Below, in pieces: positions 934-45,793 of a stretch of DNA of 64,000 nucleotides. This DNA is from Lichenostomus cassidix (Eukaryota; Chordata; Aves; Passeriformes; Meliphagidae), in assembly GCA_008360975.2 (NCBI GenBank), contig CM039182.1, forward strand, positions 151,441,858 through 151,505,857, read 5' to 3'. Under the pieces are notes generated by a model. The model saw nothing but the letters and a program-made list of their open reading frames with translations. It had not been told where the DNA came from and made no database searches. Every line of letters begins with the position of its first letter. Position 1 is the stretch's first letter. The position numbers and the translations under genes are program-made.

Positions 934-2430
934 TCACCCTCGCAGCGCGATGTCCCCGGGGTGGCTCAGCCAGACGTCGAAAACGCTTTTATTGGGGGGA
1001 GGAGGAGGAGGAGGAGGAGGAGGAGGAGGAGGAGGAGGAGGAGGAGGAGGAGGAGGCGACGACCCTAAATCCCCCTCGGGGTGCTTTTGGGGTCTCGGGG
1101 GGTTGGGGTGAGGCAGGATTGGGGTCGCCCAGTGTAGGGCCAGGATTGGGGTCACCCCGTTCTGGGCTGGGGGAGCCACGGCGTTTGGGGCCACGGCGGT
1201 GCTGTAGGACGTGGGCAGCTGACCCCAAAGGATGGGCTCCGAGCCTTTTTGGGGTGCTGAGAGAATGGGGTCAGAGCCTTTTTGGGGTGCTGAGAGAATG
1301 GGGTCAGAGCCTTTTTGGGGTCCCCAAATAATGGGGTCAGAGCCTTTTTGGGACACTGAAATAATGGGGTCAGAGCCTTTTTGGGGTGCTGAGATAATGG
1401 GGTCAGAGCCTTTTTGGGATCCCAAAATAATGGGGGATGACATCCCATGGGGTTTAGGGAACTCAAACCCTTTTTGGGATCCTAAAATAATGGGATCAGA
1501 TCCTTTTTGGGATCCCCAAATAATGATGTCAGACCCGTTTTGGGATCCCCAAATAATGGGGTCAGACCCGTTTTGGGACCCCAAAATAATAGGATCAAAC
1601 CCTTTTTGGGACCCCAAAACAATAGGCTCAACCCCTTTTTGGGACTCCAAAACAATAGGATCAGAACCTTTTTGGGACCCCAAAATAATAGGGGATGATG
1701 TTCCTTGGGGTCTGGGGGGTTCAGATCCTTTTTGGGATCCCAAAATAATGATGTCAGACCCGTTTTGGGATCCCCAAATAATGAGGTCAGAGCCGTTTTG
1801 GGACCCCAAAATAATAGGATCAAACCCTTTTTGGGACCCTAAAATAATAGGATCAGACCCTTTTTGGGACCCCAGAATAATAGGGGATGACATCCCTTGG
1901 GGTCTGGTGGGTTCAGACCCTTTTAGGGATCCCCAAATAATAGGATCAGAACCTTTTTGGGACCCCAAAACAATAGGATCAGACCCTTTTTGGGACTCCA
2001 AAATAATAGGATCAAACCCATTTTGGGATCCCAGAATAATAGGGAATGAGGTCCCTTGGGGTTTAGGGGACTCAGACCCTTTTTGGGACCCCAAACCAAC
2101 AGGCTCAACCCCTTTTTGGGATCCCCAGCTGGGCTCCAGCAGCACAGGAGGCGACGACGACCCCAAATCCCTTCCGTCCCCAAACGGGGGATTTTCCCGC
2201 AGGAGGGACGCGATGGAGAAGCTGGAATGGGGCGGGGTGGGGGAGGGGGGGTAGGGACACCCCGAAAGGACGAACGGGGACAGGTCGGGGACAAAGGGGG
2301 TGGCAGTGCCACCTCCTCCCCCCCGAGCCACGGCGGTGTTCTGCAGTTTTAGGGCCGCCGGCGGGATTCGGGTCACGTCCACCGTCCAGTAGTTGCCCTT
2401 GGCTTGGGGTTTGGTGGGGTCTTTGAGCAC
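934..2430 (-). CDS. FOXH1: FOXH1 terminal exon, copy 1 (498 codons plus stop)
   Basis: C-terminal part of forkhead box H1, the nuclear DNA-binding partner that brings activated SMAD2/3-SMAD4 to Nodal/activin target genes. The exon opens after a CCCCCCCAG acceptor (AG at 2432-2431). Exon residues 1-34 match the last strand/wing of the forkhead domain ([22 protein letters not shown]). FSIASLL at residues 71-77 (2220-2200) is an EH1-type Groucho/TLE motif. Next come 24 tandem repeats (20 of 11 aa such as [11 protein letters not shown], 4 of 20 aa), then WGQLPTSYS, polyproline (19 AGG units on the plus strand, 1000-1056), and the SMAD-interaction motif [14 protein letters not shown] before the stop. 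Mammalian FOXH1 shares the WGQLPTSY and PPNKS-DVW-SHP blocks but lacks the repeats. In this copy only, the frame continues through the acceptor to an ATG at 2457. Exons for the rest of the forkhead domain are absent. Confidence 0.88.
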
Positions 2431-3320
2431 CTGGGGGGGAAAGGGGGAGGGTGGCATCCTAAAAGGGCCTGGAATGGCCTGAGATGTCCTAAAAGATCCT
2501 AAAATATCCGAAAATGTCCTAAAATGTCCTAAAATGTCCTGAAATATTTGGGACCCTACAGGGGTGGGAACCCCATTCCTAAAATGTCCTGAAATGTCCT
2601 GAAATGTCCTGAAATATCAAAAAATGTCCTAAAAGATCCTAAAATGTCCTAAAATGTCCTAAAATGTCCTAAAATTTCCTAAAATGTTCTGAAATATCCT
2701 ACAATATCCTCAAATATCCTAAAAGATCCTAAAATATCCTAAAAGATCCTAAAATGTCCTAAAATATTTGGGATCCTACAGGAATGGGAATCCCAAAATC
2801 CCATAGGAATGGGACACCAAAACCCCCAAAATCCCCCAAAATGGGAACCCAAATCCCCCAGAAATGGGAACCCCAAAAACCCCAAAATCCCACAGGAATG
2901 GAATCCCAAAATCCTCAAAATCCCATAGGAATGGGACCTCAAAATCCCATAGGAATGGGACCTCAAAATCCCCCAAATGGGAACCCCAAAACCCCCAAAA
3001 TCCCAAAGGAATGAAAATCCCGAAATCCCATAGGAAGGAGACCCTAAACCCCCCAGAAATGGAAACCCCAAAAACCCCAAAATCCCATAGGAATGGGAAC
3101 CTCAAACCCCTGAGAAACGGGAAACCATTCCTAAAATATCCTAAAATATCCCAAAATGTCCTAAAATGTCCTAAAATATCCTAAAATGTCCTAAAATGTC
3201 CTAAAATGTCCTGAAATATCCTAAAATATCCTAATATATCCTAAATTACCCTAAAATGTCCTAAAAGATCCTAAAATACCCTAAAATATCTTAAAATACC
3301 CTAAAATACCCTAAAATATC
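2431..3320. repeat. 10-bp TCCTAAAATG satellite with AGGAATGGGA... composite, unit 1
   Basis: Intron-like sequence 5' of FOXH1 copy 1. After the polypyrimidine tract come runs of TCCTAAAATG/TCCTAAAATA (2455-2770 and 3126-3320). These flank a composite repeat built from GGGAACCCCAAAATCCCA and TAGGAATGGGA (2780-3125). An ATTTGGGATCCTACAGG junction motif recurs between blocks. No coding sequence was recognised. Confidence 0.85.
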
Positions 3321-3575
3321 TCGGACCCTACAGGGATGGGAACCCCAAAATCCTATAGGAATGAGGCCCCAAACCCTCAGAAATGGGAACCCCAAAGCCC
3401 CCAAATCCCACAAGAAGAGGATCCCCAGACCCCCAGATTGGGATTTCCCTCATCCCAATGACCCCAAATCCCAGGGAACCCCATAAAAACCCCAAATCCC
3501 CCTCAACCCCAAACACCTCACCCTACAGACCCCCAATCCCATCCCCCTCCCCCTTATCCAACCCCCCACAGCGAG
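3320..3575. repeat. ~250-bp low-repeat segment, unit subtype I
   Basis: One of the few non-satellite stretches, with landmarks CAAGAAGAGGATCC near 3411 and TTTCCCTCATCCCAATGACC near 3446. The same segment recurs at 31795-32040 and 40225-40475 but is missing from units 2, 3 and 4. I translated it by eye on the minus strand looking for forkhead helix 3 and found no match, so it is called intronic. Confidence 0.75.
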
Positions 3576-3589
3576 GGATCCCCAAAACC

Positions 3590-5046
3590 CTAAAAACCCC
3601 ATAAAACCCCAAAAAACCCATAAAAACCCAATAAAAAACCCATAAAACCCCAACCCCCAAAAACCTAAATAAAACCCCCATAACCCCATAAAAACCCCAA
3701 ACCCCATAAAAATACCATAAAAACACGAAAAAAACCCATAAAAACACCAAAAAAACCCAAAACCCAAAAAAACCCATAAAAAACCCCATAAAAACTCCAT
3801 AAAAACCCCAAAACCCCATAAAACTCCCAAAATCCTAAAAACCCAATAAAAACCCATAAAAACCTAAAAACCCCAATAAAAACCCCAAAATCCCATAAAA
3901 CCCCAAAATACTATAGAAACCCCATAAAAAACCCCAAAAAACTCCATAAAAACCCCAAAATGCCATTAAAAACCCATAAAACCCCATAAAAACCAAAAGA
4001 AACCCATATAAAGCCCAAAAAAAACCCCATAAAAACCCCACAAAAACCCCCAAACCCCATAAAAACCCCATAAAAATCCTAAAAACCCCATAAAATCCCC
4101 ATAAAAACCCCACAAAAACCCCATTAAACCCCCAAAAACCCATAAAAACCCCAAACACCAAAAAACCCCATAAAAACCCCAAAACCCCATAAAAAATCCT
4201 AAAATCCCCATTAAAACCCCATAAAAAACCTCAAAACCCCATAAAAACATCTAAACCCCATAACAAACCCTAAAAAACCCAAAACCCCAAAACCCCCACA
4301 AAAACCCATAAAAATCACCAAAAAAACCAAAACCCCATAAAAACTTCAAAACCCCAATAAAAACCCATAAAACCCATAAAACCACCAAAACACCCAAAAA
4401 CCCCATAAAAGCCCAAAAACCCCATGAAAACCCCATAAAACTCCATAAAAACCCCATAAAAAACTCAAAACCCATGAAAACCTCATAAAAATCTGAAACC
4501 CCATTAAAAAACCATAAAAATCCCATAAAAACCCCATAAAACCCCCAAAACCCCTTAAAACCCCCAAAATCCTAAAAACCCCATTAAAAAACCCCAAAAC
4601 CCCATAAAAACCCTATTAAAAACTCCAAAACCCAAAAAAACAACCAAAAACCCCATAAAAACTCCATAAAACCCCAAAACCCCATAAAACCCTCAAAACT
4701 CCATAAAAACCCAAAACCCCACAAAACCCCCAAAACCCCATAAAAACCCCAACAAACCTCCAAAAACCCATAAAAACCCTATGAAACCCCCACAAAACCC
4801 CATATAAATCCCAAAACCCCACAAGAACCCATAAAACACCATAAAAACCCCAAAACTCCAAAACCCCAGAAAAACCCCAGAAAAACCACGTCAAAACCCC
4901 AAAACCCCATGAAAACCCCAGAAAAACCCAAAACCCCATAAAAACCCCATAAAAACCCCATAAAACCCTCAAAATCCTAAAAAACTCACAAAAACACCTT
5001 AAAAACCTGTAAAAGCCCCAAAACTGCATAAAAACCCTATAAAAAC
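3590..5046. repeat. CCCCATAAAAA/CCCCAAAA satellite, unit 1
   Basis: About 1.45 kb of C4-A4-5 and C4-ATA5 units (8-12 bp). The minus strand reads GGGGTTTTGGGGTTTTTATG, which fits a G-quadruplex pattern with loops of 4-7 nt and resembles ciliate-type telomere repeats. The minus-strand MGFLWGFYGV-like frames are repeat artefacts. Confidence 0.9.
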
Positions 5047-8035
5047 TGACTGGGATGGACTGGGATGAACTGGGATGGACTGGGATGAACTGGGATGAAC
5101 TGGGAGTGACTGGGATGAACTGGGACAGACTGGGATTGAACTGGGATGAACTGGGAGTGACTGGGATGAACTGGGATGGACTGGGATGGACTGGGATGGA
5201 CTGGGATGGACTGGGATGAACTGGGACAGACTGGGATTGAACTGGGATGGACTGGGATGGACTGGGATTGAACTGGGATGAACTGGGATGAACTGGGATA
5301 GACTGGGATTGAACTGGGATTGAACTGGGATTGAACTGGGCTGAACTGGGATGGACTGGGATTGAACTGGGATGAACTGGGATGGAACTGGGATGAACTG
5401 GGATGAACTGGGATTGAACTGGGAGTTACTGGGATGAACTGGGATGGACTGGGATGGACTGGGATGGACTGGGATGAACTGGGATTGAACTGGGATGAAC
5501 TGGGATTGAACTGGGATGAACTGGGATGAACTGGGATTGAACTGGGATGGACTGGGATGGACTGGGATTGAACTGGGATGGACTGGGATGGACTGGGATT
5601 GAACTGGGATGAACTGGGATGGACTGGGAATGAACTGGGATGGACTGGGATGAACTGGAATGGACTGGGATTGAACTGGGATGAACTGGGATGGACTGGG
5701 ATGGACTGGGATGAACTGGGATGAACTGGGATGAACTGGGATGGACTGGGCTGAACTGGGATTGAACTGGGATGAACTGGGATTGAACTGGGATGAACTG
5801 GGATGAACTGGGACAGACTGGGATTGAACTGGGATGAACTGGGATGAACTGGGATGAACTGGGATGGACTGGGATGAACTGGGATGAACTGGGACAGACT
5901 GGGATGAACTGGGATGAACTGGGATTGAACTGGGATGAACTGGGATGAACTGGGATGAACTGGGATGAACTGGGATTGAACTGGGATGAACTGGGATTGA
6001 ACTGGGATGAACTGGGATGAACTGGGATGGACTGGGATTGAACTGGGATTGAACTGGGATGGACTGGGATGAACTGGGATGAACTGGGATGAACTGGGAC
6101 AGACTGGGATTGAACTGGGATGAACTGGGATGAACTGGGATTGAACTGGGATTGAACTGGGATGAACTGGGATGAACTGGGATTGAACTGGGATGGACTG
6201 GGATGGACTGGGATTGAACTGGGATGAACTGGGATGAACTGGGATGGACTGGGATTGAACTGGGATGAACTGGGCTGAACTGGGATGGACTGGGATGGAC
6301 TGGGATGAACTGGGATGAACTGGGATTGAACTGGGATGAACTGGGATGAACTGGGATGGACTGGGATGGACTGGGATGAACTGGGATGAACTGGGATTGA
6401 ACTGGGATGAACTGGGATGGACTGGGATGAACTGGGATGAACTGGGATGAACTGGGATGAACTGGGATTGAACTGGGACAGACTGGGATGAACTGGGATT
6501 GAACTGGGATGAACTGGGATGAACTGGGATGAACTGGGATTGAACTGGGAGCGACTGGGATTGAACTGGGATTGAACTGGGATGGACTGGGACGGACTGG
6601 GATTGAACTGGGATGAACTGGGATTGAACTGGGACAGACTGGGATGAACTGGGATTGAACTGGGATTGAACTGGGATGAACTGGGATTGAATTGGGATTG
6701 AACTGGGATTGAACTGGGATGAACTGGGATGGACTGGGATTGAACTGGGATGAACTGGGATTGAACTGGGATGAACTGGGACAGACTGGGATTGAACTGG
6801 GATGAACTCGGATGAACTGGGCTGAACTGGGATGAACTGGGATGAACTGGGATTGAACTGGGATGAACTGGGATGAACTGGGATGAACTGGGACAGACTG
6901 GGATGGATTGGGATGAACTGGGATGAACTGGGATGAACTGGGATTGAACTGGGATGGACTGGGATGGACTGGGATTGAACTGGGATTGAACTGGGATGAA
7001 CTGGGATGGACTGGGATGAACTGGGATTGAACTGGGATGAACTGGGATGAACTGGGATGAACTGGGATGAACTGGGACAGCCTGGGATGAACTGGGAGCA
7101 ACTGGGATGAACTGGGATTGAACTGGGATGAACTGGGATGAACTGGGATGAACTGGGATGAACTGGGATGGACTGGGATTGAACTGGGATGGACTGGGAT
7201 GGACTGGGATGGACTGGGATTGAACTGGGATGAACTGGGATGAACTGGGATGAACTGGGATTGACTGGGATTGAACTGGGATGAACTGGGATGAACTGGG
7301 ATGAACTGGGATGAACTGGGATGAACTGGGACAGACTGGGATTGAACTGGGATTGAACTGGGATGGACTGAGATTGAACTGGGATATGAACTGGGATGAA
7401 CTGGGATGGACTGGGATGAACTGGGATTGAACTGGGATGAACTGGGATGAACTGGGATGAACTGGGATGTACTGGGATGAACTGGGATGGACTGGGATGA
7501 ACTGGGATGAACTGGGATGTACTGGGATGAACTGGGATGAACTGGGATGCACTGGGATGGACTGGGATGGACTGGGATGAACTGGGATTGAACTGGGATG
7601 AACTGGGATTGACTGGGATGAACTGGGATTGAACTGGGATGAACTGGGATGGAACTGGGATGAACTGGGATGAACTGGGACAGACTGGGATGAACTGGGA
7701 TGAACTGGGATAGACTGGGACGGACTGGGATGGACTGGGACGGACTGGGATGAACTGGGACAGACTGGGATTGAACTGGGATGAACTGGGATGAACTGGG
7801 ATGAACTGGGATGAACTGGGATTGGACTGGGATGGACTGGGATGAACTGGGATGGACTGGGATGAACTGGGATGAACTGGGATGGACTGGGATGAACTGG
7901 AATTGAACTGGGATTGAACTGGGATGAACTGGGATGAACTGGGATGAACTGGGATTGAACTGGGATGAACTGGGATGAACTGGGATTGAACTGGGATGAA
8001 CTGGGATGAACTGGGATGAACTGGGACAGCCTGGG
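5047..8035. repeat. CTGGGATGAA 10/11-bp satellite, unit 1 (longest array)
   Basis: Nearly 3 kb of CTGGGATGAA, CTGGGATGGA, CTGGGACAGA (10 bp) and CTGGGATTGAA (11 bp). The unit has no stop on the minus strand. Because 10 is 1 modulo 3, all three minus frames read the same SQFIPVHPSS-type peptide for hundreds of residues. This is not evidence of a gene. Confidence 0.95.
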
Positions 8036-8040
8036 CAGGG

Positions 8041-8077
<37 letters not shown>

Positions 8078-8165
8078 GACCCACAATGACACCAACAACG
8101 TCACTGCCTTTGTCACCCAATGCCTTTATTGGCTGCCAGGCTGGGCAGGGACAGCGGGGGGGACC
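8036..8165 (-). promoter_or_regulatory. (TG)17 tract plus AATAAA polyadenylation-type segment, copy 2 side
   Basis: On the minus strand CCAATAAAGG (AATAAA at 8130-8125) is followed within ~30-50 nt by GTTGTTGGTGTC and then a (TG)17 run (8075-8042). That is the layout of a cleavage/polyadenylation site with a GU-rich downstream element. It lies 1.9 kb 3' of the FOXH1 copy 2 stop, so it may end that exon's 3' UTR. The non-TG part appears identical in all six occurrences in the window. Confidence 0.6.
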
Positions 8166-9985
8166 CCAAATTTTGGGGTGGGACCAGGAAATTTTGGGGT
8201 GAGACTGCAAAATTTAGGGTTGAATCGGCAAAATTTTAGGGTAGGACATCTGAAATTTTGGGACGAGAACCCCGAAATTTTGGGGTGAAACTCACTAAAT
8301 TTTGGGGTGGGACCCGCGAAATGTTGGGATGAAACATCTGAAATTTTGGGACAAGACCGTGAAATTTAGGGGTGAGGCATCCGAAATTTTGGGGTGGGAT
8401 CCGCGAAATCTTGGAATAGGAACCCCGAAATTTTGGGATGAGACCACAAAATTTGGGATGGAATCCACAAAATTTTGGGGTGAGACCCGTGAAATTTTGA
8501 GGTGGAATCCCCAAAATTTTGGGATGAGATCCCGAAATTTTGGGGTTGGATTTGTGAAATTTTGGCATGAGACCATGAAATTTTGGGGTGGAATCTCCAA
8601 AATTTTGGGATGAAACCCCCAAAATTTTGGGATGAGATCTGTGAAATTTTGGGATGGGACTCGCAAACTTTTGTGGTGAGACATCCAAAAATTTGGGATG
8701 AGATCGTGAAATTTTGGGGTGAGACATCCGAAATTTTAGGATGAAATGCCCGAAATTTGGGATGAAATCCCTGAAATTTTGGGATGAGATCCCCAAAATT
8801 TTGGGATGGGATCCACGAAATTTTAGGATGAAACCCCCAAAATTTTGGGAAAAGAGCCCCGAAACTTTGGGATGAGAGCTGCAAAATTTTGGGGTTACAC
8901 CACGAAATTTTGGGGTGAGACATCTGAAATTTTGGGATGAGATCTGCGAAATTTTGGAATGAGAAACCCCAAATTTTGGGATGGGAGTTGCAAAATGTTG
9001 GGTTGAGACATCCAAAATTTCGGGATGAGACCATGAAATTTTGGGGTGGAAGCCGGCAAATTTTGGGATGAGACATCCAAAATTTTAGGATGAAACCCCA
9101 GCAAATTTGGGATGAAGCCCCAAAATTTTGGGACGAAGCACCCGAAATTTTGAGGTGAGACCCGCGAAATTTTGGGATGAAACCCCAAAATTTTGGGGCG
9201 GGATCCCTTCAATTTTGGGATGGGAACCTCAAAATTTTGGGATGAGACCCCAAAATTTTGGGATGGGATCCATGAAATTTTGGAACAAAATCCACGCAAT
9301 TTTGGGATGAGATCCACAAAATTTTAGGGTGAAACCACCAAAATTTTAGGGTGAGACCCGCCAAATCTTGGGATGAGAGCCCCGAAATTTTGGGGTGAGA
9401 CCACAAAATATTGGGATGAGAGCTGTAAACTTTTGGGGTAACTCCATGAAATTTTGGTGTGGGACATCTGAAATTTTAGGATTAAACCCCTGCAAATTTG
9501 GGATGGGACCTGCAAAATTTTGGGGTGAGACCATGAAATTTTGGGATGAAACCCCCGAAATTTTGGGACGGGATCCCCAAAATTTTGGGACGGGAACTCC
9601 AAAAATTTAGGATGAAACCCCTGAAATTTTGGGACGGGATCCCTGAAATTTTAGGATGAGACTCCCGAAATTTTGGGGTGAGCCTGCGAAATTTTGGGAT
9701 GAAAGCCTGAAATTTTGGGATTAAACACCCAATATTTTGGGGTGAGACATGCAAAATTTTGGGATGAGACCCCCGAAATTTTGAGGTGGGATCCCCGAAA
9801 TTTGGGATGAAACCCCAAAATTTTCGGATAAGAGCCCCTAAATTTTGGGGTGAGACCTGCAAAATTTTGGGGTGGAATCTGCAAAATTTTGGGGTGAAAC
9901 CCCGCAAATTTAGGATGAAACCCCCAAAATTTTAGGATGAAACCCCCAAAATTTTATGACCAGCACCCCAAAATTTGGGCACGAA
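8166..9985. repeat. ~20-bp AAAATTTT satellite (block A), unit 2
   Basis: About 1.8 kb of diverged ~20-bp units between FOXH1 copy 2 and its putative polyadenylation site. If transcribed from the minus strand, most of the 3' UTR of copy 2 would be this repeat. Confidence 0.9.
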
Positions 9986-10005
9986 AACCCCCAAAATGTT
10001 GGGCG

Positions 10006-11709
10006 TCACCCTCGCAGCGCGATGTCCCCGGGGTGGCTCAGCCAGACGTCGAAAACGCTTTTATTGGGGGGAGGAGGAGGAGGAGGAGGAGGAGGAGGAG
10101 GAGGAGGAGGAGGAGGCGACGACCCTAAATCCCCCTCGGGGTGCTTTTGGGGTCTCGGGGGGTTGGGGTGAGGCAGGATTGGGGTCGCCCAGTGTAGGGC
10201 CAGGATTGGGGTCACCCCGTTCTGGGCTGGGGGAGCCACGGCGTTTGGGGCCACGGCGGTGCTGTAGGACGTGGGCAGCTGACCCCAAAGGATGGGCTCC
10301 GAGCCTTTTTGGGGTGCTGAGAGAATGGGCTCCGAGCCTTTTTGGGGTGCTGAGAGAATGGGGTCAGAGCCTTTTTGGGGTCCCCAAATGATGGGGTCAG
10401 AGCCTTGTTGGGGTGCTGAGATAATGGGGTCAGAGCCTTTTTGGGGTGCTGAGATAATGGGGTCAGAGCCTTTTTGGGGTGCTGAGAGAATGGGCTCCGA
10501 GCCTTTTTGGGGTCCCCAAATAATGGGGTCAGAGCCTTTTTGGGGTCCCCAAATAATGGGGGATGACATCCCATGGGGTTTAGGGAACTCAAACCCTTTT
10601 TGGGATCCTAAAATAATGGGATCAGATCCTTTTTGGGACCCCAAAATAATAGGGGATGAGGTCCCTTGGGGTCTGGGGGGTTCAGACCCTTTTTGGGATC
10701 CCCAAATAATGATGTCAGACCCGTTTTGGGATCCCCAAATAATGGGGTCAGAGCCTTTTTGGGACCCCAAAATAATAGGGGATGACGTCCCTTGGGGTTT
10801 AGGGAACTCAAACCCTTTTTGGGATCCTAAAATAATAGGATCAAACCCTTTTTGGGAGCCCAAAACAATAGGGGATGATGTCCCTTGGGGTCTGGGGAGT
10901 TCAGACCCTTTTTGGGGTCCCAAAGTAATGAGGTCAGACCCTTTTTGGGACCCCAAAACAATAGGCTCAACCCCTTTTTGGGACCCCAAAACAATAGGAT
11001 CAAACCCTTTTTGGGACCCCAAAATAATAGGGGATGATGTTCCTTGGGGTCTTGTGGGTTCAGATCCTTTTTGGGATCCCCAAATAATGATGTCAGACCC
11101 GTTTTGGGATCCCCAAATAATGGGATCAGAGCCTTTTTGGGGTCCCAGAATAATAGGTTCAGACCCTTTTTGGGACCCCAAAATAATAGGGGATGACATC
11201 CCTTGGGGTCTGGGGGACTCAGACCCTTTTAGGGATCCCCAAATAATAGGATCAGAGCCTTTTTGAGACCCCAAAACAATAGGATCAAACCCTTTTTGGG
11301 ACCCTGAAATAATAGGATCAGACACTTTTTGGGACCCCAAAACAATAGGCTCAAACCCTTTTTGGGACCCCAAACCAACAGGCTCAACCCCTTTTTGGGA
11401 TCCCCAGCTGGGCTCCAGCAGCACAGGAGGCGACGACGACCCCAAATCCCTTCCGTCCCCAAACGGGGGATTTTCCCGCAGGAGGGACGCGATGGAGAAG
11501 CTGGAATGGGGCGGGGTGGGGGAGGGGGGGTAGGGACACCCCGAAAGGACGAACGGGGACAGGTCGGGGACAAAGGGGGTGGCAGTGCCACCTCCTCCCC
11601 CCCGAGCCACGGCGGTGTTCTGCAGTTTTAGGGCCGCCGGCGGGATTCGGGTCACGTCCACCGTCCAGTAGTTGCCCTTGGCTTGGGGTTTGGTGGGGTC
11701 TTTGAGCAC
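10006..11709 (-). CDS. FOXH1: FOXH1 terminal exon, copy 2 (567 codons plus stop)
   Basis: Same architecture as copy 1: acceptor before GTGCTCAAAGACCCC at 11709, forkhead wing remnant, FSIASLL, repeat domain, WGQLPTSYS, polyproline, [14 protein letters not shown], stop. The repeat domain is longer, at 29 units (23 of 11 aa, 6 of 20 aa), and the AGG tract has 15 units (10072-10116). The first ~100 and last ~80 residues look identical to the other copies, so all length difference is whole repeats. A TTTTTGAGACC variant near 11264 puts a stop in the antisense frame but is synonymous (GGG TCT for GGG TCC) in the sense frame. There is no start codon of its own, so it would need upstream exons. Confidence 0.87.
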
Positions 11710-14053: not shown

Positions 14054-14330
14054 ACTGACTGGGATGGACTGGGATGAACTGGGATGGACTGGGATGAACT
14101 GGGATGAACTGGGATTGAACTGGGATGAACTGGGATGAACTGGGATGAACTGGGATTGAACTGGGATTGAACTGGGATGAACTGGGATGAACTGGGATGA
14201 ACTGGGATGAACTGGGACAGACTGGGATGAACTGGGATGAACTGGGATGGACTGGGATGAACTGGGATTGAACTGGGATGAACTGGGATGAACTGGGATG
14301 AACTGGGATGAACTGGGACAGCCTGGGCAG
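14054..14330. repeat. CTGGGATGAA satellite, unit 2 (shortest array)
   Basis: Only ~280 bp of the 10/11-bp repeat, against ~3 kb in unit 1. This is the largest length difference between units and the main reason unit sizes vary. Confidence 0.93.
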
Positions 14331-14332
14331 GG

Positions 14333-14369
<37 letters not shown>

Positions 14370-14450
14370 GACCCACAATGACACCAACAACGTCACTGCC
14401 TTTGTCACCCAATGCCTTTATTGGCTGCCAGGCTGGGCAGGGACAGCGGG
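14331..14450 (-). promoter_or_regulatory. (TG)17 plus AATAAA segment, copy 3 side
   Basis: AATAAA on the minus strand at 14422-14417 with the same GU-rich downstream sequence and a TG run (14367-14334). It is 2.6 kb 3' of the FOXH1 copy 3 stop and is a putative polyadenylation site. Confidence 0.58.
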
Positions 14451-17040: not shown

Positions 17041-17064
17041 ACAAAACCCCCAAAATGTTGGGCG

Positions 17065-18543
17065 TCACCCTCGCAGCGCGATGTCCCCGGGGTGGCTCAG
17101 CCAGACGTCGAAAACGCTTTTATTGGGGGGAGGAGGAGGAGGAGGAGGAGGAGGAGGAGGAGGAGGAGGAGGAGGCGACGACCCTAAATCCCCCTCGGGG
17201 TGCTTTTGGGGTCTCGGGGGGTTGGGGTGAGGCAGGATTGGGGTCGCCCAGTGTAGGGCCAGGATTGGGGTCACCCCGTTCTGGGCTGGGGGAGCCACGG
17301 CGTTTGGGGCCACGGCGGTGCTGTAGGACGTGGGCAGCTGACCCCAAAGGATGGGCTCCGAGCCTTTTTGGGGTGCTGAGAGAATGGGGTCAGAGCCTTT
17401 TTGGGGTCCCCAAATAATGGGGTCAGAGCCTTTTTGGGGTCCCCAAATAATGGGGTCAGAGCCTTTTTGGGACCCCAAAACAATAGGGTCAAACCCTTTT
17501 TGGGACCCTAAAATAATGGGTTCAGACCCTTTTTGGGACCCCAGAATAATAGGATCAGACCCTTTTTGGGACCCCAGAATAATAGGATCAGACCCTTTTT
17601 GGGGTCCCAGAATAATGGGGGATGACATCCCATGGGGTTTAGGGAACTCAAACCCTTTTTGGGATCCTAAAATAATGGGATCAGATCCTTTTTGGGACCC
17701 TAAAATAATAGGGGATGACATCCCTTGGGGTCTTGTGGGTTCAGATCCTTTTTGGGATCCCCAAATAATGATGTCAGACCCGTTTTGGGACCCCAAAATA
17801 ATAGGGGATGACATCCCTTGGGGTTTAGGGGGTTCAGAGCTTTTTTGGGGTCCCAGAATAATAGGATCAGAGCCTTTTTGGGACCCCAAAACAATAGGAT
17901 CAAACCCTTTTTGGGACCCCAAGACAATAGGATCAAACCCTTTTTGGGACCCCAAAATAATAGGGGATGATGTTCCTTGGGGTCTGGGGGGTTCAGATCC
18001 TTTTTGGGGTCCCAAAACAATAGGCTCAACCCCTTTCTGGGACCCCAAAACAATAGGCTCAAATCCTTTTTGGGACCCCAAACCAACAGGCTCAACCCCT
18101 TTTTGGGATCCCAAAATAATAGGGGATGACATCCCTTGGGGTCTGGTGGGTTCAGACCCTTTTAGGGATCCCCAAATAATAGGTTCAGACCCTTTTTGGG
18201 ACCCCAAACCAACAGGCTCAACCCCTTTTTGGGATCCCCAGCTGGGCTCCAGCAGCACAGGAGGCGACGACGACCCCAAATCCCTTCCGTCCCCAAACGG
18301 GGGATTTTCCCGCAGGAGGGACGCGATGGAGAAGCTGGAATGGGGCGGGGTGGGGGAGGGGGGGTAGGGACACCCCGAAAGGACGAACGGGGACAGGTCG
18401 GGGACAAAGGGGGTGGCAGTGCCACCTCCTCCCCCCCGAGCCACGGCGGTGTTCTGCAGTTTTAGGGCCGCCGGCGGGATTCGGGTCACGTCCACCGTCC
18501 AGTAGTTGCCCTTGGCTTGGGGTTTGGTGGGGTCTTTGAGCAC
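17065..18543 (-). CDS. FOXH1: FOXH1 terminal exon, copy 3 (492 codons plus stop)
   Basis: Intact exon with the same conserved ends as the other copies. The repeat domain has 23 units (18 short, 5 long) and the AGG tract 15 units (17131-17175). The order of repeat variants (VEPVGL, FEPIVL, DIIIW types) differs from copies 1 and 2, so it is not a simple recent copy of a neighbour. EH1 and SMAD-interaction motifs are unchanged. Confidence 0.87.
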
Positions 18544-22622: not shown

Positions 22623-23969
22623 TCACCCTCGCAGCGCGATGTCCCCGGGGTGGCTCAGCCAGACGTCGAAAACGCTTTTATTGGGGGGAGGAGGAGGAGG
22701 AGGAGGAGGAGGAGGAGGAGGCGACGACCCTAAATCCCCCTCGGGGTGCTTTTGGGGTCTCGGGGGGTTGGGGTGAGGCAGGATTGGGGTCGCCCAGTGT
22801 AGGGCCAGGATTGGGGTCACCCCGTTCTGGGCTGGGGGAGCCACGGCGTTTGGGGCCACGGCGGTGCTGTAGGACGTGGGCAGCTGACCCCAAAGGATGG
22901 GCTCCGAGCCTTTTTGGGGTGCTGAGAGAATGGGGTCAGAGCCTTTTTGGGGTGCTGAGAGAATGGGGTCAGAGCCTTTTTGGGGTGCTGAGGGAATGGG
23001 GTCAGAGCCTTTTTGGGGTCCCCAAAGGATGGGGTCAGAGCCTTTTTGGGGTGCTGAGAGAATGGGGTCAGAGCCTTTTTGGGGTCCTGAAAGAATGGGG
23101 TCAGAGCCTTTTTGGGGTCCCCAAATAATGGGGTCAGAGCCTTTTTGGGGTCCTGAGATAATGGGGTCAGAGCCTTTTTGGGGTGCTGAGATAATGGGGT
23201 CAGAGCCTTTTTGGGGTCCCCAAATAATGGGCTCAGAGCCTTTTTGGGGTCCCCAAATAATAGGATCAAACCCTTTTTGGGGTCCCAGAATAATAGGTTC
23301 AGACACTTTTTGGGACCCCAAAATAATAGGGGATGACGTCCCTTGGGGTTTAGGGAACTCAAACCCTTTTTGGGATCCTAAAATAATGGGATCAGATCCT
23401 TTTTGGGACCCCAAAATAATAGGGGATGACATCCCTTGGGGTCTGGGGGGTTCAGACCCTTTTTGGGATCCCCAAATAATGATGTCAGACCCGTTTTGGG
23501 ACCCCAAAATAATAGGGGATGACGTCCCTTGGGGTCTGGGGAGGTCAAACCCTTTTTGGGACCCCAAAACAATAGGATCAACCCCTTTTTGGGACCCCAA
23601 ACCAACAGGCTCAACCCCTTTTTGGGACCCCAAACCAACAGGCTCAACCCCTTTTTGGGATCCCCAGCTGGGCTCCAGCAGCACAGGAGGCGACGACGAC
23701 CCCAAATCCCTTCCGTCCCCAAACGGGGGATTTTCCCGCAGGAGGGACGCGATGGAGAAGCTGGAATGGGGCGGGGTGGGGGAGGGGGGGTAGGGACACC
23801 CCGAAAGGACGAACGGGGACAGGTCGGGGACAAAGGGGGTGGCAGTGCCACCTCCTCCCCCCCGAGCCACGGCGGTGTTCTGCAGTTTTAGGGCCGCCGG
23901 CGGGATTCGGGTCACGTCCACCGTCCAGTAGTTGCCCTTGGCTTGGGGTTTGGTGGGGTCTTTGAGCAC
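22623..23969 (-). CDS. FOXH1: FOXH1 terminal exon, copy 4 (448 codons plus stop; shortest)
   Basis: Shortest copy: 21 repeats (18 short, 3 long) and 11 AGG units (22689-22721). The C-terminal half of the repeat domain is dominated by the [22 protein letters not shown] subtype. Subtracting repeat and AGG codons leaves 179 residues, exactly as in copy 1, so all length change is in whole codon-multiple repeats. The conserved ends and acceptor are intact. Confidence 0.87.
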
Positions 23970-27263: not shown

Positions 27264-27298
<35 letters not shown>

Positions 27299-28816: not shown

Positions 28817-30478
28817 TCACCCTCGCAGCGCGATGTCCCCGGGGTGGCTCAGCCAGACGTCGAAAACGCTTTTATTGGGGGGAGGAGGAGGAGGAGGAGG
28901 AGGAGGAGGAGGAGGAGGAGGAGGAGGAGGAGGAGGAGGAGGAGGCGACGACCCTAAATCCCCCTCGGGGTGCTTTTGGGGTCTCGGGGGGTTGGGGTGA
29001 GGCAGGATTGGGGTCGCCCAGTGTAGGGCCAGGATTGGGGTCACCCCGTTCTGGGCTGGGGGAGCCACGGCGTTTGGGGCCACGGCGGTGCTGTAGGACG
29101 TGGGCAGCTGACCCCAAAGGATGGGCTCCGAGCCTTTTTGGGGTGCTGAGAGAATGGGGTCAGAGCCTTTTTGGGGTGCTGAGAGAATGGGGTCAGAGCC
29201 TTTTTGGGGTCCCCAAATAATGGGGTCAGAGCCTTTTTGGGGTCCTGAGATAATGGGGTCAGAGCCTTTTTGGGGTGCTGAGAGAATGGGCTCCGAGCCT
29301 TTTTGGGGTGCTGAGAGAATGGGGTCAGAGCCTTTTTGGGGTCCTGAGATAATGGGGTCAGAGCCTTTTTGGGGTGCTGAGATAATGGGGTCAGAGCCTT
29401 TTTGGGGTGCTGAGAGAATGGGGTCAGAGCCTTTTTGGGATCCCAAAATAATGGGGGATGACATCCCATGGGGTTTAGGGAACTCAAACCCATTTTGGGA
29501 TCCTAAAATAATGGGATCAGATCCTTTTTGGGATCCCCAAATAATGATGTCAGACCCGTTTTGGGATCCCCAAATAATGGGTTCAAACCCTTTTTGGGGT
29601 CCCAGAATAATAGGTTCAGACACTTTTTGGGACGCCAAAATAATAGGGGATGATGTCCCTTGGGGTTTAGGGGGTTCAGAGCCTTTTTGGGGTCCCCAAA
29701 TAATAGGATCAGAGCCTTTTTGAGACCCCAGAATAATAGGATCAAACCCTTTTTGGGATCTGAAAATAATAGGGGATGATGTTCCTTGGGGTCTGGTGGG
29801 TTCAGATCCTTTTTGGGACCCCAAAACAATAGGGGATGACATCCCTTGGGGTCTGGGGAGGTCAAACCCTTTTTGGGACCCCAAAACAACAGGCTCAAAC
29901 CCTTTTTGGGACCCCAAAACAATAGGATCAAACCCTTTTTGGGACCACAAAATAATAGGATCAACCCCTTTTTGGGGTCCCAGAATAATAGGCTCAACCC
30001 CTTTTTGGGATCCCAGAATAATAGGGGATGATGTTCCTTGGGGTCTGGTGGGTTCAGATCCTTTTTGGGGTCCCAAAACAATAAGATCAAACCCTTTCTG
30101 GGACCCCAAAACAATAGGATCAACCCCTTTTTGGGACCCCAAACCAACAGGCTCAACCCCTTTTTGGGATCCCCAGCTGGGCTCCAGCAGCACAGGAGGC
30201 GACGACGACCCCAAATCCCTTCCGTCCCCAAACGGGGGATTTTCCCGCAGGAGGGACGCGATGGAGAAGCTGGAATGGGGCGGGGTGGGGGAGGGGGGGT
30301 AGGGACACCCCGAAAGGACGAACGGGGACAGGTCGGGGACAAAGGGGGTGGCAGTGCCACCTCCTCCCCCCCGAGCCACGGCGGTGTTCTGCAGTTTTAG
30401 GGCCGCCGGCGGGATTCGGGTCACGTCCACCGTCCAGTAGTTGCCCTTGGCTTGGGGTTTGGTGGGGTCTTTGAGCAC
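28817..30478 (-). CDS. FOXH1: FOXH1 terminal exon, copy 5 (553 codons plus stop)
   Basis: 28 repeats (23 short, 5 long) and the longest AGG tract, 21 units (28883-28945). The sense frame is open from acceptor to stop. The antisense frame is interrupted near 29724 by the same TTTTTGAGACC variant seen in copy 2. EH1 and SMAD-interaction motifs are intact. Confidence 0.87.
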
Positions 30479-31794: not shown

Positions 31795-32040
31795 ACCCTA
31801 CAGGGATGGGAACCCCAAAATCCTATAGGAATGAGGCCCCAAACCCTCAGAAATGGGAACCCCAAAAACCCCAAATCCCACAAGAAGAGGATCCCCAGAC
31901 CCCCAGATTGGGATTTCCCTCATCCCAATGACCCCAAATCCCAGGGAACCCCATAAAAACCCCAAATCCCCCTCAACCCCAAACACCTCACCCTACAGAT
32001 CTCCCCTCTCCCTTATCCAAACCTCCCCACAGCAAGGGAT
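31795..32040. repeat. ~250-bp low-repeat segment, unit 5 (subtype I)
   Basis: Copy of the segment at 3320-3575, with a short deletion near 31998 (CAGATCTCCCCTCTCCC) relative to unit 1. Confidence 0.75.
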
Positions 32041-34658: not shown

Positions 34659-34659
34659 G

Positions 34660-34698
<39 letters not shown>

Positions 34699-37705: not shown

Positions 37706-37725
37706 AACCCCCAAAATGTTGGGCG

Positions 37726-39402
37726 TCACCCTCGCAGCGCGATGTCCCCGGGGTGGCTCAGCCAGACGTCGAAAACGCTTTTATTGGGGGGAGGAGGAGG
37801 AGGAGGAGGAGGAGGAGGAGGAGGAGGAGGAGGAGGCGACGACCCTAAATCCCCCTCGGGGTGCTTTTGGGGTCTCGGGGGGTTGGGGTGAGGCAGGATT
37901 GGGGTCGCCCAGTGTAGGGCCAGGATTGGGGTCACCCCGTTCTGGGCTGGGGGAGCCACGGCGTTTGGGGCCACGGCGGTGCTGTAGGACGTGGGCAGCT
38001 GACCCCAAAGGATGGGCTCCGAGCCTTTTTGGGGTGCTGAGAGAATGGGGTCAGAGCCTTTTTGGGGTGCTGAGATAATGGGGTCAGAGCCTTTTTGGGG
38101 TGCTGAGAGAATGGGGTCAGAGCCTTTTTGGGATCCCCAAAGAATGGGGTCAGAGCCTTTTTGGGGTCCTGAGATAATGGGGTCAGAGCCTTTTTGGGGT
38201 CCCCAAATAATGGGGTCAGAGCCTTTTTGGGGTGCTGAGAGAATGGGGTCAGAGCCTTTTTGGGATCCCCAAATAATGGGGTCAGAGCCTTTTTGGGACT
38301 CCAAAATAATAGGATCAAACCCTTTTTGGGATCCCAGAATAATAGGGGATGACGTCCCTTGGGGTTTAGGGGGTTCAGACCCTTTTTGGGATCCCCAAAT
38401 AATGGGGTCAGAGCCGTTTTGGGACCCCAAAATAATAGGATCAAACCCTTTTTGGGACCCTAAAATAATAGGATCAGAGCCTTTTTGAGACCCCAAAATA
38501 ATAGGGGATGACGTCCCTTGGGGTCTGGGGGGTTCAGACCCTTTTAGGGATCTCCAAATAATAGGATCAGAACCTTTTTGGGACCCCAAAATAATAGGGG
38601 ATGACGTCCCTTGGGGTTTAGGGGACTCAGACCCTTTTTGGGACCCCAAAACAATAGGATCAGACACTTTTTGGGACCCCAAAATAATAGGTTGAGGCCC
38701 TTTTTGGGACCCCAAAACAATAGGGGATGACATCCCTTGGGGTCTGGTGGGTTCAGACCCTTTTAGGGATCCCCAAATAATAGAATCAGAACCTTTTTGG
38801 GACCCCAAAATAATAGGGGATGATGTCCCTTGTGCTTTAGGGTGTTCAAACCCTTTTTGGGACCCCAAAACAATAGGATCAAACCCTTTTTGGGATGCTG
38901 AAATAATGATATCAGAGCTTTTTTGGGACCCCAAAACAACAGGCTCAGACCCTTTTTGGGACCCCAAACCAACAGGCTCAACCCCTTTTTGGGATCCCAA
39001 AACAATAGGATCAAACCCTTTTTGGGACCCCAAACCAACAGGCTCAACCCCTTTTTGGGACCCCAAACCAACAGGCTCAACCCCTTTTTGGGATCCCCAG
39101 CTGGGCTCCAGCAGCACAGGAGGCGACGACGACCCCAAATCCCTTCCGTCCCCAAACGGGGGATTTTCCCGCAGGAGGGACGCGATGGAGAAGCTGGAAT
39201 GGGGCGGGGTGGGGGAGGGGGGGTAGGGACACCCCGAAAGGACGAACGGGGACAGGTCGGGGACAAAGGGGGTGGCAGTGCCACCTCCTCCCCCCCGAGC
39301 CACGGCGGTGTTCTGCAGTTTTAGGGCCGCCGGCGGGATTCGGGTCACGTCCACCGTCCAGTAGTTGCCCTTGGCTTGGGGTTTGGTGGGGTCTTTGAGC
39401 AC
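37726..39402 (-). CDS. FOXH1: FOXH1 terminal exon, copy 6 (558 codons plus stop)
   Basis: 29 repeats (24 short, 5 long) and 15 AGG units (37792-37836). Contains unusual unit variants ([19 protein letters not shown]). The sense frame is intact and the antisense frame broken (38488 and beyond). The acceptor, forkhead wing remnant, [16 protein letters not shown] and [14 protein letters not shown] match the other copies. Confidence 0.87.
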
Positions 39403-40224
39403 CTGGGGGGGAAAGGGGGAGGGTGGGACCCTAAAAGGGCCTGAAATGGCCTGAGATGTCCTAAAAGATCCTAAAATACCCTAAAATATCCTAAAATGTC
39501 TTAAGATATCCTAAAATATTTGGGATCCTACAGGGGTGGGAACCCCATTCCTAAAATGTCCTGAAATGTCCTAAAATGTCCTAAAAGATCCTAAAATATC
39601 CTAAAATGTCCTAAAATATTTGGGATCCTACAGGAATGGGAATCCCAAAATCCTATAGGAATGGGACACCAAAACCCCCAAAATCCCCCAAAATGGGAAC
39701 CCAAACCCTCAGAAATGGGAACCCCAAAACCCTCAAAATCCCACAGGAATGGAACCCCAAAATCCTCAAAATCCCATAGGAATGGGAGCCGAAATCCCGT
39801 AGGAAGGAGACCCTAAACCCCCCAGAAATGGAAACCCCAAAATCCCGAAAATCCCATAGGTAGGAGACCCCAAAATCCTGTAGGAATGGGACACAAAAAC
39901 CCCCAAAATCCCAAAGGAAGGAGACCCCAAACCCCTGAGAAACGGGAACCCATTCCTAAAATATCCTAAAATATCCTAAAATGTCCTAAAATATCCCAAA
40001 ATGTCCTAAAATACCCTAAAATGTCCAAAAATATCCTGAAATATCCTAAAATATCCTAAAATATCCTAAAATATCCCAAAATGTCCTAAAATGTCCTAAA
40101 ATGTCCTAAAATGTCCTGAAATATCCTAAAATATCCTAAAATACCCTAAAATACCCTAAAAGATCCTAAAATACCCTAAAATATCTTAAGATACCCTAAA
40201 ATACCCTAAAATATCTCGGACCCT
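39403..40224. repeat. TCCTAAAATG satellite and composite repeat, unit 6
   Basis: Intron-like flank of copy 6. The composite includes GTAGGAAGGAGACC variants not common in other units. Confidence 0.85.
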
Positions 40225-40475
40225 ACAGGGATGGGAACCCCAAAATCCTATAGGAATGAGGCCCCAAACCCTCAGAAATGGGAACCCCAAAGCCCCCAAA
40301 TCCCACAAGAAGAGGATCCCCAGACCCCCAGATTGGGATTTCCCTCATCCCAATGACCCCAAATCCCAGGGAACCCCATAAAAACCCCAAATCCCCCTCA
40401 ACCCCAAATCCCTCACCCTACAGACCCCCAATCCCTTCCTCCTTATCCAATCCACCCCCCCCCACAGCGAGGGAT
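40225..40475. repeat. ~250-bp low-repeat segment, unit 6 (subtype I)
   Basis: Third copy of the segment at 3320-3575. It is nearly identical to unit 1 up to ~40430, then diverges in the C-rich end. Confidence 0.75.
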
Positions 40476-43523: not shown

Positions 43524-43524
43524 G

Positions 43525-43563
<39 letters not shown>

Positions 43564-43649
43564 GACCCACAATGACACCAACAACGTCACTGCCTTTGTC
43601 ACCCAATGCCTTTATTGGCTGCCAGGCTGGGCAGGGACAGCGGGGGGGA
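43524..43649 (-). promoter_or_regulatory. (TG)18 plus AATAAA segment, copy 7 side
   Basis: Minus-strand AATAAA at 43616-43611 with the GU-rich element and a TG run at 43561-43526. It is only ~370 nt 3' of the copy 7 stop, so copy 7 would have by far the shortest 3' UTR. Confidence 0.6.
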
Positions 43650-43980
43650 CCCCAAATTTTGGGGTGGGACCAGGAAATTTTGGGGTGGGACCAGGAAATT
43701 TTGGGGCGAGACCATAAAATTTTGGGGCGAGACCATACAATTTTGGGGTGAGAACTGTGAAATTTGGGATGAAACCCCAACATTTTGGGAGAAGAGCCCC
43801 TAAATTGTGGGGTGGGATCTGCAAAATTTTGGGATTGGACCCCCAAAATTTTGGGATGGGATCGGCAAAATTTTGGAATAGGAACCCCAAAATTTTAGGA
43901 TGAAACCCCCAAAATTTTAGGATGAAACCCCCGAAATTTCATGACCAGCACCCCAAAATTTGGGCACAAAACCCCCAAAA
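43650..43980. repeat. ~20-bp AAAATTTT satellite (block A), unit 7 (short)
   Basis: Only ~330 bp of the ~20-bp repeat between the copy 7 stop and its AATAAA segment. Confidence 0.88.
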
Positions 43981-43989
43981 TGTTGGGCG

Positions 43990-45793
43990 TCACCCTCGCA
44001 GCGCGATGTCCCCGGGGTGGCTCAGCCAGACGTCGAAAACGCTTTTATTGGGGGGAGGAGGAGGAGGAGGAGGAGGAGGAGGAGGAGGAGGAGGCGACGA
44101 CCCTAAATCCCCCTCGGGGTGCTTTTGGGGTCTCGGGGGGTTGGGGTGAGGCAGGATTGGGGTCGCCCAGTGTAGGGCCAGGATTGGGGTCACCCCGTTC
44201 TGGGCTGGGGGAGCCACGGCGTTTGGGGCCACGGCGGTGCTGTAGGACGTGGGCAGCTGACCCCAAAGGATGGGCTCCGAGCCTTTTTGGGGTGCTGAGA
44301 GAATGGGGTCAGAGCCTTTTTGGGGTGCTGAGAGAATGGGGTCAGAGCCTTTTTGGGGTGCTGAAAGAATGGGGTCAGAGCCTTTTTGGGATCCTAAAAT
44401 AATGGGGTCAGAGCCTTTTTGGGGTCCCCAAATAATGGGGTCAGAGCCTTTTTGGGATCCCAAAATAATAGGGGATGACATCCCATGGGGTTTAGGGAAC
44501 TCAAACCCTTTTTGGGACCCCAAAATAATAGGGGATGACATCCCTTGGGGTCTGGTGGGTTCAGACTCTCTTTGGGATCCCCAAATAATGATGTCAGACC
44601 CGTTTTGGGATCCCCAAATAATGGGATCAGAGCCTTTTTGGGGTCCCAGAATAATAGGTTCAGACACTTTTTGGGACCCCAAAATAATAGGGGATGACAT
44701 CCCTTGGGGTCTTGTGGGTTCAGACCCTCTTTGGGATCCCAAAATAATGATGTCAGACCTGTTTTGGGATCCCCAAATAATGGGGTCAGACCCGTTTTGG
44801 GACTCCAAAATAATAGGGGATGACATCCCTTGGGGTCTGGGGGTGTCAGACCCTTTTTGGGGTCCCCAAATAATGATGTCAGACCCGTTTTGGGACCCCA
44901 AAATAATAGGGGATGACATCCCTTGGGGTTTAGGGGGTTCAGAGCTTTTTTGGGGTCCCAGAATAATAGGATCAGAGCCTTTTTGGGACCCCAAAACAAT
45001 GGGATCAAACCCTTTTTGGGACCCCAAGACAATAGGATCAAACCCTTTTTGGGACCCCAAAATAATAGGGGATGATGTTCCTTGGGGTCTGGGGGGTTCA
45101 GACCCTCTTTGGGATCCCCAAATAATGATGTCAGACCCGTTTTGGGATCCCAAAACAATAGGCTCAACCCCTTTTTGGGACCCCAAAACAATAGGATCAA
45201 ACCCTTTTTGGGACCCCAAAATAATAGGGGATGATGTTCCTTGGGGTCTTGTGGGTTCAGATCCTTTTTGGGATCCCCAAATAATGATGTCAGACCCGTT
45301 TTGGGATCCCCAAAGAATGGGGTCAGAGCCTTTTTGGGGTCCCCTAATAATAGGATCAGAGCCTTTTTGGGACCCCAAAATAATAGGGGATGATGTCCCT
45401 TGGGGTCTTGTGGGTTCAGACCCTCTTTGGGATCCCCAAATAATGATGTCAGACCCGTTTTGGGATCCCCAAATAATGGGGTCAGAGCCTTTTTGGGGTC
45501 CTGCAATAATAGGGGATGACATCCCTTGGGGTCTGGGGGGTTCAGAGCCTTTTAGGGATCCCCAAATAATAGGATCAAACCCTTTTTGGGACCCCAAAAT
45601 AATAGGGGATGAGGTCCCTTGGGGTCTGGGTGGTTCAGACCCTTTTTGGGATCCCAAAATGATGGGGTCAGAGCCTTTTTGGGATCCCCAAATAATAGGA
45701 TCAGACACTTTTTGGGATCCCAGAATAATAGGGAATGAGGTCCCTTGGGGTTTAGGGGACTCAGACCCTTTTTGGGATCCCCAAATAATAAGA
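43990..45793 (-). CDS. FOXH1: FOXH1 terminal exon, copy 7, 5' end lost in assembly gap (at least 600 codons)
   Basis: Rightmost copy and therefore the first met by minus-strand transcription. The C-terminal end is standard (13 AGG units at 44056-44094, [14 protein letters not shown], stop). The repeat domain is the longest seen and stays open to the last sequenced base before the N run, so the acceptor, forkhead wing and EH1 motif are not visible. It is rich in 20-aa units and NGSDIIIWG variants. If upstream FOXH1 exons exist on this chromosome, they should lie in or beyond the gap on this side. Confidence 0.82.

What the first reader, a model, noticed from the sequence alone, without database searches (positions are those of the whole stretch)
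934..45793. FOXH1 last exon amplified seven times in a 45-kb higher-order repeat
Seven minus-strand blocks carry FOXH1-specific sequence ([43 protein letters not shown]), separated by 5.6-9.1 kb. Only the last exon with its flanks is repeated. FOXH1 is a single-copy developmental gene in the vertebrates I know of, so a megasatellite built around its SMAD-binding exon would be new.
Basis: partly seen in the sequence, partly recalled or inferred. Interest (0 to 1): 0.92.

Follow-up and report, generated by a model that had tools for sequence, protein, structure and literature searches.

The report
Seven tandem FOXH1 last exons
A stretch of vertebrate, probably bird, DNA carries seven tandem copies of the last exon of the embryonic control gene FOXH1, all with an open reading frame and, wherever the sequence lets one see them, intact splice and RNA-end signals, packed in satellite DNA; it looks like a larger form of the exon stuttering known on tiny bird chromosomes.

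Summary
Seven minus-strand FOXH1 last-exon copies lie at 934-45793, 5,558-9,072 bp apart; the seventh is cut by a 500-N gap. The repeat is a complete terminal-exon module: identical 23-nt acceptor tract (6 of 6 copies showing it), open frame with an in-frame 33/60-bp coding minisatellite (7 of 7), stop, 22-bp-satellite 3'UTR, and an identical AATAAA plus GT-rich block (6 of 6 in view). Spacers are other satellites with one shared junction. Exons for the forkhead helices were not found. Unique exon sequence is invariant (588 bp), yet 92 of 121 minisatellite unit alleles are private to one copy, which argues against assembly of one locus; no reads were available. Older minisatellite variation looks constrained (pN/pS 0.42), the newest does not (15 synonymous, 31 nonsynonymous, p = 0.28). 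Best reading: a real exon array grown by recombination between satellites, akin to 'exon stuttering' of chicken dot chromosomes and to amplicons such as HINT1W. Whether more than one exon is used is unknown. The genome search did not complete and the host is unidentified.

The parts
934..2430 (-). FOXH1 terminal exon copy 1 (coding part, 498 aa + stop); its poly(A) module lies outside the window
10006..11709 (-). FOXH1 terminal exon copy 2 (567 aa + stop)
17065..18543 (-). FOXH1 terminal exon copy 3 (492 aa + stop)
22623..23969 (-). FOXH1 terminal exon copy 4 (448 aa + stop)
28817..30478 (-). FOXH1 terminal exon copy 5 (553 aa + stop)
37726..39402 (-). FOXH1 terminal exon copy 6 (558 aa + stop)
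43990..45793 (-). FOXH1 terminal exon copy 7, open to the gap; 5' part and acceptor not seen
1228..2100 (-). in-frame 33/60-bp coding minisatellite of copy 1 (23 units); others: 10288-11379 (28), 17347-18213 (22), 22893-23639 (20), 29117-30148 (27), 38008-39072 (28), 44266-45792 (37, cut by gap)
8044..8201 (-). poly(A) module of copy 2: AATAAA (first base 8130) followed by (GT)n; identical block in copies 3-7 with AATAAA at 14422, 21005, 27351, 34751, 43616
8131..10005 (-). 3'UTR of copy 2, mostly 22-bp satellite; lengths from stop to AATAAA in copies 2-7: 1875, 2642, 1617, 1465, 2974, 373 bp
2431..8041 (-). spacer between exon copy 1 and the poly(A) module of copy 2: CCTAAAATAT (10-bp), a 24-bp family, AAAACCCCATA (11-bp) and ACTGGGATGA (10-bp) satellites; order of the 10-, 11- and 10-bp satellites is the same in 6 of 6 spacers in 250-bp bins (24-bp family flagged in 3 of 6)
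4964..5048 (.). 85 bp before the shared junction (11-bp satellite to ACTGGGATGA satellite); in the other spacers it ends at 14057, 20258, 26316, 33835, 40929
45794..46293 (.). scaffold gap, 500 N
59338..62607 (+). protein-kinase exons (MAP kinase; MAPK15 by recall) on the far side of the gap; further exons at about 53.2 and 56.9 kb read by eye and by recall only

Best explanation
The feature is a real head-to-tail array of at least seven copies of a complete FOXH1 terminal-exon module. The module has a splice acceptor, an exon encoding the end of the forkhead domain, the EH1-like motif, a variable minisatellite linker and the SMAD-binding tail, then a stop, a satellite 3'UTR, a poly(A) signal and a GT-rich element. 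One founding duplication joined the satellite downstream of the gene (ACTGGGATGA) to the satellite in the intron before the last exon (AAAACCCCATA) (inferred from the shared junction). Further copies arose by unequal recombination or copying errors between these satellites, and conversion keeps the exon bodies alike (inferred). In use, exons 1-2, which lie outside the window, would splice to the first acceptor they meet, normally the copy nearest them. The other copies would be a reserve that is mostly silent but can replace the first by recombination (inferred, not shown).
For: Seven copies, one strand, 5.6-9.1 kb apart. 354 bp from the acceptor identical in 6 of 6; WGQLP block (174 bp) and coding end (60 bp) identical in 7 of 7; 23 nt before the exon and a 158-bp AATAAA/GT block identical in 6 of 6, while the 17 nt before those 23 have 4 variable columns and the next 80 have 34. 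On the minus strand of the array the only YAG sites with at least 95% pyrimidine in the 20 nt up to the Y are the six exon starts, and AATAAA occurs only at the 6 poly(A) modules and the 7 NK codons of the SMAD tail. The same junction is present in 6 of 6 spacers, one with a single-base difference. Coding minisatellite: 0 of 159 anchor spacings break the frame, against 108 of 327 in the adjacent 3'UTR satellite; 0 stops in 7 arrays; pN/pS 0.42 among 84 distinct 33-bp units, lowest of six frames. Spacers 2-4 lack a block of about 200 bp that spacers 1, 5 and 6 share, as expected if neighbours arose from each other.
Against: No reads, transcripts or relatives could be examined. Exons 1-2 are not in the window, so no complete gene is shown. 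The acceptor of copy 7 and the poly(A) module of copy 1 are not in view. The most recent minisatellite changes are not depleted of amino-acid changes (15 synonymous, 31 nonsynonymous, p = 0.28; minimum-spanning-tree version 15 to 33, p = 0.33; absence of new stops has probability 0.14 without selection), so present selection on each copy is unproven. An antisense frame of the minisatellite is nearly as open, with pN/pS 0.50. Invariance extends to synonymous sites and to the noncoding poly(A) block, so it is not evidence of protein-level selection, and consensus polishing could cause part of it.
Confidence: 0.68

Rival explanations
1. Silent macrosatellite: the exon copies are passengers in a satellite array that is cut off from FOXH1 exons 1-2 (another chromosome, W or germline-restricted), and a normal FOXH1 gene exists elsewhere.
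For: Exons 1-2 absent from the window; recent minisatellite changes look neutral; chicken dot and W chromosomes hold large tandem gene arrays (PMC9974502 passages).
Against: Frames are intact, with no frameshift or stop in 185 units, and so are the 6 acceptors and 6 poly(A) modules in view. The neighbour beyond the gap is a MAP-kinase gene that I recall as lying in the same chromosome region as FOXH1 in humans (recalled, not tested).
Confidence: 0.2
2. Assembly over-expansion or haplotype concatenation: one or two real exon copies were strung out into seven by the assembler.
For: 500-N gap at the array edge; exon bodies identical; 89% of the array is tandem repeat by TRF, which is hard to assemble.
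Against: No two copies have alike minisatellites: 121 unit alleles among 185 units, 92 private to one copy; longest run of identical units is 1 to 4 in the 21 pairs. Two haplotypes of one locus could give two such arrays, not seven. Sequencing noise would be expected to break the frame; it did not.
Confidence: 0.12
3. Tandem copies of whole FOXH1 genes whose exons 1-2 decayed or were lost in assembly.
For: Each unit in view has a complete 3' end.
Against: Six spacers are sequenced without N, are mostly satellite with a less repetitive block of about 200 bp in 3 of 6, and hold no forkhead-helix match better than E = 5.4.
Confidence: 0.03

Closest known systems
Sequence stuttering / exon stuttering on chicken dot chromosomes (PMC12954441; abstract and outline, section 7 part 1 of 2, section 9 part 1 of 2 and search passages seen)
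   Same: Local tandem expansions fill introns; exon sequence with its splice site is copied into the intron; repeat blocks of tens to hundreds of bases; coding exon kept intact.
   Different: There a lateral part of an exon is copied into the intron, and the authors saw no case where repeat blocks cross into exons. Here a whole terminal exon with 3'UTR and poly(A) signal is the unit, units are 5.6-9.1 kb, and the exon itself holds an expanded coding minisatellite. FOXH1 has 0 mentions in that main text.
Avian tandem gene amplicons: HINT1W (5,648-bp unit, 52 copies) and OR29G (386 intact copies) (PMC9974502; search passages seen)
   Same: Coding sequence amplified in many copies in repeat-rich parts of bird chromosomes; the HINT1W unit is kilobase-sized and tandem.
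   Different: Complete genes are amplified there; here only the terminal exon.
Exon-bearing VNTRs such as LPA kringle IV-2 (recalled)
   Same: A 5-6 kb unit with exon sequence in a variable tandem array inside one gene.
   Different: LPA units are internal exons that add up in one protein; the units here end in a stop and a poly(A) signal, so copies would exclude one another.
Alternative terminal-exon clusters such as mod(mdg4) and lola of Drosophila (recalled)
   Same: Several complete last exons could share one 5' part.
   Different: Those exons encode different domains; here the copies differ in linker length and sequence. Use is not shown.
D4Z4/DUX4 and RS447/USP17 macrosatellites (recalled)
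   Same: Open reading frame in every unit of a macrosatellite.
   Different: There the unit carries a whole ORF, not one exon of a spliced gene.

Membership tests
FOXH1 (terminal exon) | FOXH1-specific wing 2 region after the forkhead core | tested here: met
   copy 5 ORF matches three solved FOXH1 chains, best 6e-21 over residues 16-94
FOXH1 (terminal exon) | EH1-like motif (FSIKSLLG in mammals) | tested here: met
   FSIASLLR in 6 of 7 copies, the seventh being cut by the gap; mammalian motif in PMC1939712 passages
FOXH1 (terminal exon) | SMAD-interaction tail (motif recalled) | tested here: inconclusive
   tail peptide present in 7 of 7; a 20-residue PDB query of it gave 0 matches at E 10; PMC6824466 passages showed no motif sequence
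FOXH1 (complete gene) | exons encoding the forkhead helices | tested here: not met
   no match in the window to residues 1-60 of the forkhead query better than E 5.4
avian exon stuttering | repeats of a coding exon's edge with its splice site next to that exon | tested here: met
   acceptor and exon repeated, 6 of 6 in view
avian exon stuttering | location on a dot microchromosome of a bird | not testable with these tools
   genome search unreachable in 9 of 9 tries
avian exon stuttering | only fragments of exons are copied, repeats do not cross into exons | tested here: not met
   exon through poly(A) signal repeated; minisatellite inside exon
macrosatellite / ampliconic array | head-to-tail units of one orientation with a shared junction | tested here: met

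The most novel reading that the evidence does not exclude
FOXH1 in this animal is a gene with seven or more interchangeable terminal exons that are spliced alternatively, giving Nodal/SMAD transcription factors that differ in the length (448 to at least 600 exon-encoded residues) and sequence of the linker between the repressor (EH1) motif and the SMAD-binding tail. Satellite recombination reshuffles this repertoire between individuals.
Probability: 0.13. Interest if true: 0.88.

Novelty: new variant of a known kind. Interest (0 to 1): 0.62.

Why it matters
It would show that exon stuttering can grow into arrays of whole, signal-complete terminal exons in an essential embryonic regulator, a gene otherwise known as single-copy (recalled). 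It offers a direct test of whether satellite instability on small chromosomes feeds protein diversity, and a natural case of concerted evolution acting on exon bodies while the minisatellite inside them diverges.

Tried and rejected
Tried and dropped: (1) Pfam on two exon ORFs, 0 families. (2) A fuzzy-anchor indel control scored 43 spacings of the coding minisatellite as frame breaks and 243 of 481 in the 3'UTR satellite; the anchors slid by a base, as the clean unit parse and translation show, so both were redone with exact anchors (0 of 159 and 108 of 327). (3) The block of about 200 bp in spacers 1, 5 and 6 was looked at as a possible exon 2: I saw no forkhead reading in six frames, and elsewhere in the array it has only partial matches of 25-64 bp. 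(4) Exon identity as proof of purifying selection was rejected: about 158 synonymous sites are invariant too, and so is the noncoding 158-bp poly(A) block; homogenisation, recency or polishing must contribute. (5) Post-duplication selection on each exon: not supported. (6) Five avian CR1 hallmark strings: one hit in the window (54306), no help with the host. (7) Rfam: 0 families. (8) A short tail peptide against PDB: nothing. (9) A structure prediction was not run: the linker is repetitive and I expect it to be disordered, and no alignment could be built.
Full report
What is there. The 5' peptides appear in 6 of 7 blocks, because the seventh runs into a 500-N gap at 45794-46293. The blocks are FOXH1: the ORF of copy 5 matches three solved FOXH1 chains, best E = 6e-21 (a fourth row is a poly-proline match at 0.078), covering the end of the forkhead region and the EH1-like motif. 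PMC1939712 lists FSIKSLLG for mammalian FoxH1 (passages); here it is [11 protein letters not shown]9701222 describes the order DNA-binding domain, EH1 motif, SMAD-interacting domain, and an unusually long wing 2 (passages). That order is seen here, with the first part missing. That the last peptide is the SMAD-interaction motif is recalled.

The repeat is a complete terminal exon. The exon starts at an AG after the tract CACCCTCCCCCTTTCCCCCCCAG, identical in 6 of 6 copies. In the 45.8-kb array the only minus-strand YAG sites with at least 95% pyrimidine over 20 nt are these six starts. Downstream of the stop comes a 22-bp satellite of 373 to 2,974 bp (6 copies), then AATAAA followed by (GT)n, in a block of 158 bp identical in 6 of 6 copies. 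AATAAA occurs on this strand only there (6) and in the NK codons of the tail (7). I read this as the poly(A) signal and its GT-rich element (inferred). The acceptor of copy 7 and the poly(A) module of copy 1 are out of view.

The coding minisatellite. Between the EH1-like motif and WGQLPTSYS the exons hold 20 to 37 units (the longest is cut by the gap) of 11 or 20 residues, commonest form near [11 protein letters not shown]. In 7 copies 185 units were parsed: 139 of 11, 39 of 20, and 7 of 10 that are the last unit parsed one residue short. There is no stop in 7 arrays, and 0 of 159 exact-anchor spacings break the frame, against 108 of 327 in the 22-bp satellite just behind the stop (an earlier fuzzy-anchor version was faulty). 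Diversity by codon position is 0.15, 0.16 and 0.31, and pN/pS among 84 distinct 33-bp units is 0.42 in the reading frame, against 0.50 to 1.29 in the five others (units are not independent, and one antisense frame is close at 0.50). So the linker was probably translated and constrained for some time. For the newest changes, private alleles one step from an allele of another copy (46 of 92), I count 15 synonymous and 31 nonsynonymous, no different from chance (p = 0.28; a spanning-tree count gives 15 to 33, p = 0.33). Selection on each present copy is therefore not shown.

How it grew. Between each poly(A) module and the next acceptor lie satellites: ACTGGGATGA, then AAAACCCCATA, then CCTAAAATAT, in that order in 6 of 6 spacers at 250-bp resolution, with a 24-bp family flagged among the last in 3 of 6. 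The junction between the first two is the same in 6 of 6 spacers, one with a single-base difference. This points to one founding duplication, probably joining 3' flank to the last intron (inferred). The 85 bp beside it align without gaps and have 8 variable columns, against 0 of about 158 synonymous sites in the exon bodies (Fisher p = 1.8e-4). The junction DNA is itself satellite-like and may take variants from its neighbours. A further block of about 200 bp is present in spacers 1, 5 and 6 and absent from 2, 3 and 4 apart from partial matches, with 4 variable columns of 209. Neighbouring copies thus share history. Minisatellites are scrambled: 121 alleles among 185 units, 92 private, and no pair of copies (21 pairs) shares more than four units in a row. 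Nearest units in other copies (mean distance 1.61 per other copy for 33-bp units, 4.10 for 60-bp) are no farther than within a copy (1.88 and 5.41), so the copies do not have long separate histories. Identical exon bodies with scrambled interiors fit recent amplification plus conversion with a very unstable minisatellite; consensus polishing of the assembly could add to the identity.

Is it real? Over-expansion of one locus would give copies of at most two haplotypes. Here 7 of 7 minisatellites differ and none is broken in frame. I put artefact at about 0.12. Copy number is a lower bound: the left edge of the window is still in the array's 22-bp satellite and the right edge is a gap. Beyond the gap lie kinase exons on the plus strand: Pfam Pkinase above its cut-off in 2 of 7 ORFs tested and below it in 3 more, and one exon matched MAP kinases best in the PDB; the name MAPK15 is recalled. 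That DNA differs in composition (31-39% G+C at 47-52 kb), has 14% tandem repeat against 89% in the array, and shares no blastn match with the array at 1e-5. The join is a scaffold join and proves nothing about true adjacency.

Mechanism. Shown: acceptor-exon-poly(A) modules in tandem, open frames, one shared junction. Inferred: growth by unequal recombination or copying errors between satellites; conversion among exons; default use of the copy nearest exons 1-2, because its acceptor and poly(A) signal come first; the remaining copies as a reserve. Not shown: any transcription, any splicing from exons 1-2, the host, the chromosome.

Comparison. PMC12954441 (abstract, section 7 part 1, section 9 part 1, passages) describes sequence stuttering in chicken dot-chromosome genes: repeats fill introns and can copy the edge of an exon with its splice site; the authors saw no case where repeat blocks cross into exons, and FOXH1 is not mentioned in the main text. 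PMC9974502 (passages) describes HINT1W in 52 tandem copies of a 5,648-bp unit on W and OR29G in 386 copies on a dot chromosome. The present array lies between the two: the unit size of an amplicon, but only a terminal exon, with stuttering-like satellites around it. In ten searches (six naming FOXH1, several listing only their top rows) I saw no report of a FOXH1 exon array; most subscription papers are not in that library.

Verdict. New variant of a known kind, interest 0.62, with alternative terminal exons of FOXH1 as the bold reading (probability 0.13).

Noticed in passing
59338-62607 (+), possibly from 53121: Plus-strand exons of a MAP-kinase gene (MAPK15 by recall) beyond the gap, head to head with FOXH1 if the scaffold join is right.
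   Followed up: partly
53282-54152: GC-rich minisatellite with periods of 18 to 210 bp, in what I take to be intron 1 of the MAP-kinase gene.
   Followed up: no
44261-45793 (+): The antisense strand of the FOXH1 minisatellite of copy 7 is also open over more than 500 codons.
   Followed up: partly
43616-43990: Copy 7, nearest the gap, has by far the shortest 3'UTR of the six in view (373 bp against 1.5-3.0 kb) and the longest minisatellite; it may be the ancestral or the used copy.
   Followed up: no
3296-3513, about 31800-32050, 40191-40408: A block of about 200 bp is present in spacers 1, 5 and 6 and missing in 2-4, splitting the units into two types.
   Followed up: yes
49280-50079: Three tandem copies of a 266-bp unit, 90% matches by TRF.
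   Followed up: no
56105-56452 and 56527-56867: Tandem duplication of about 350 bp, 92% identical, in the DNA around the MAP-kinase gene.
   Followed up: no
998-1056 and the same place in other copies: In-frame (TCC)n poly-proline tract before the SMAD tail varies from 11.7 to 21.7 triplets in the five copies listed.
   Followed up: no
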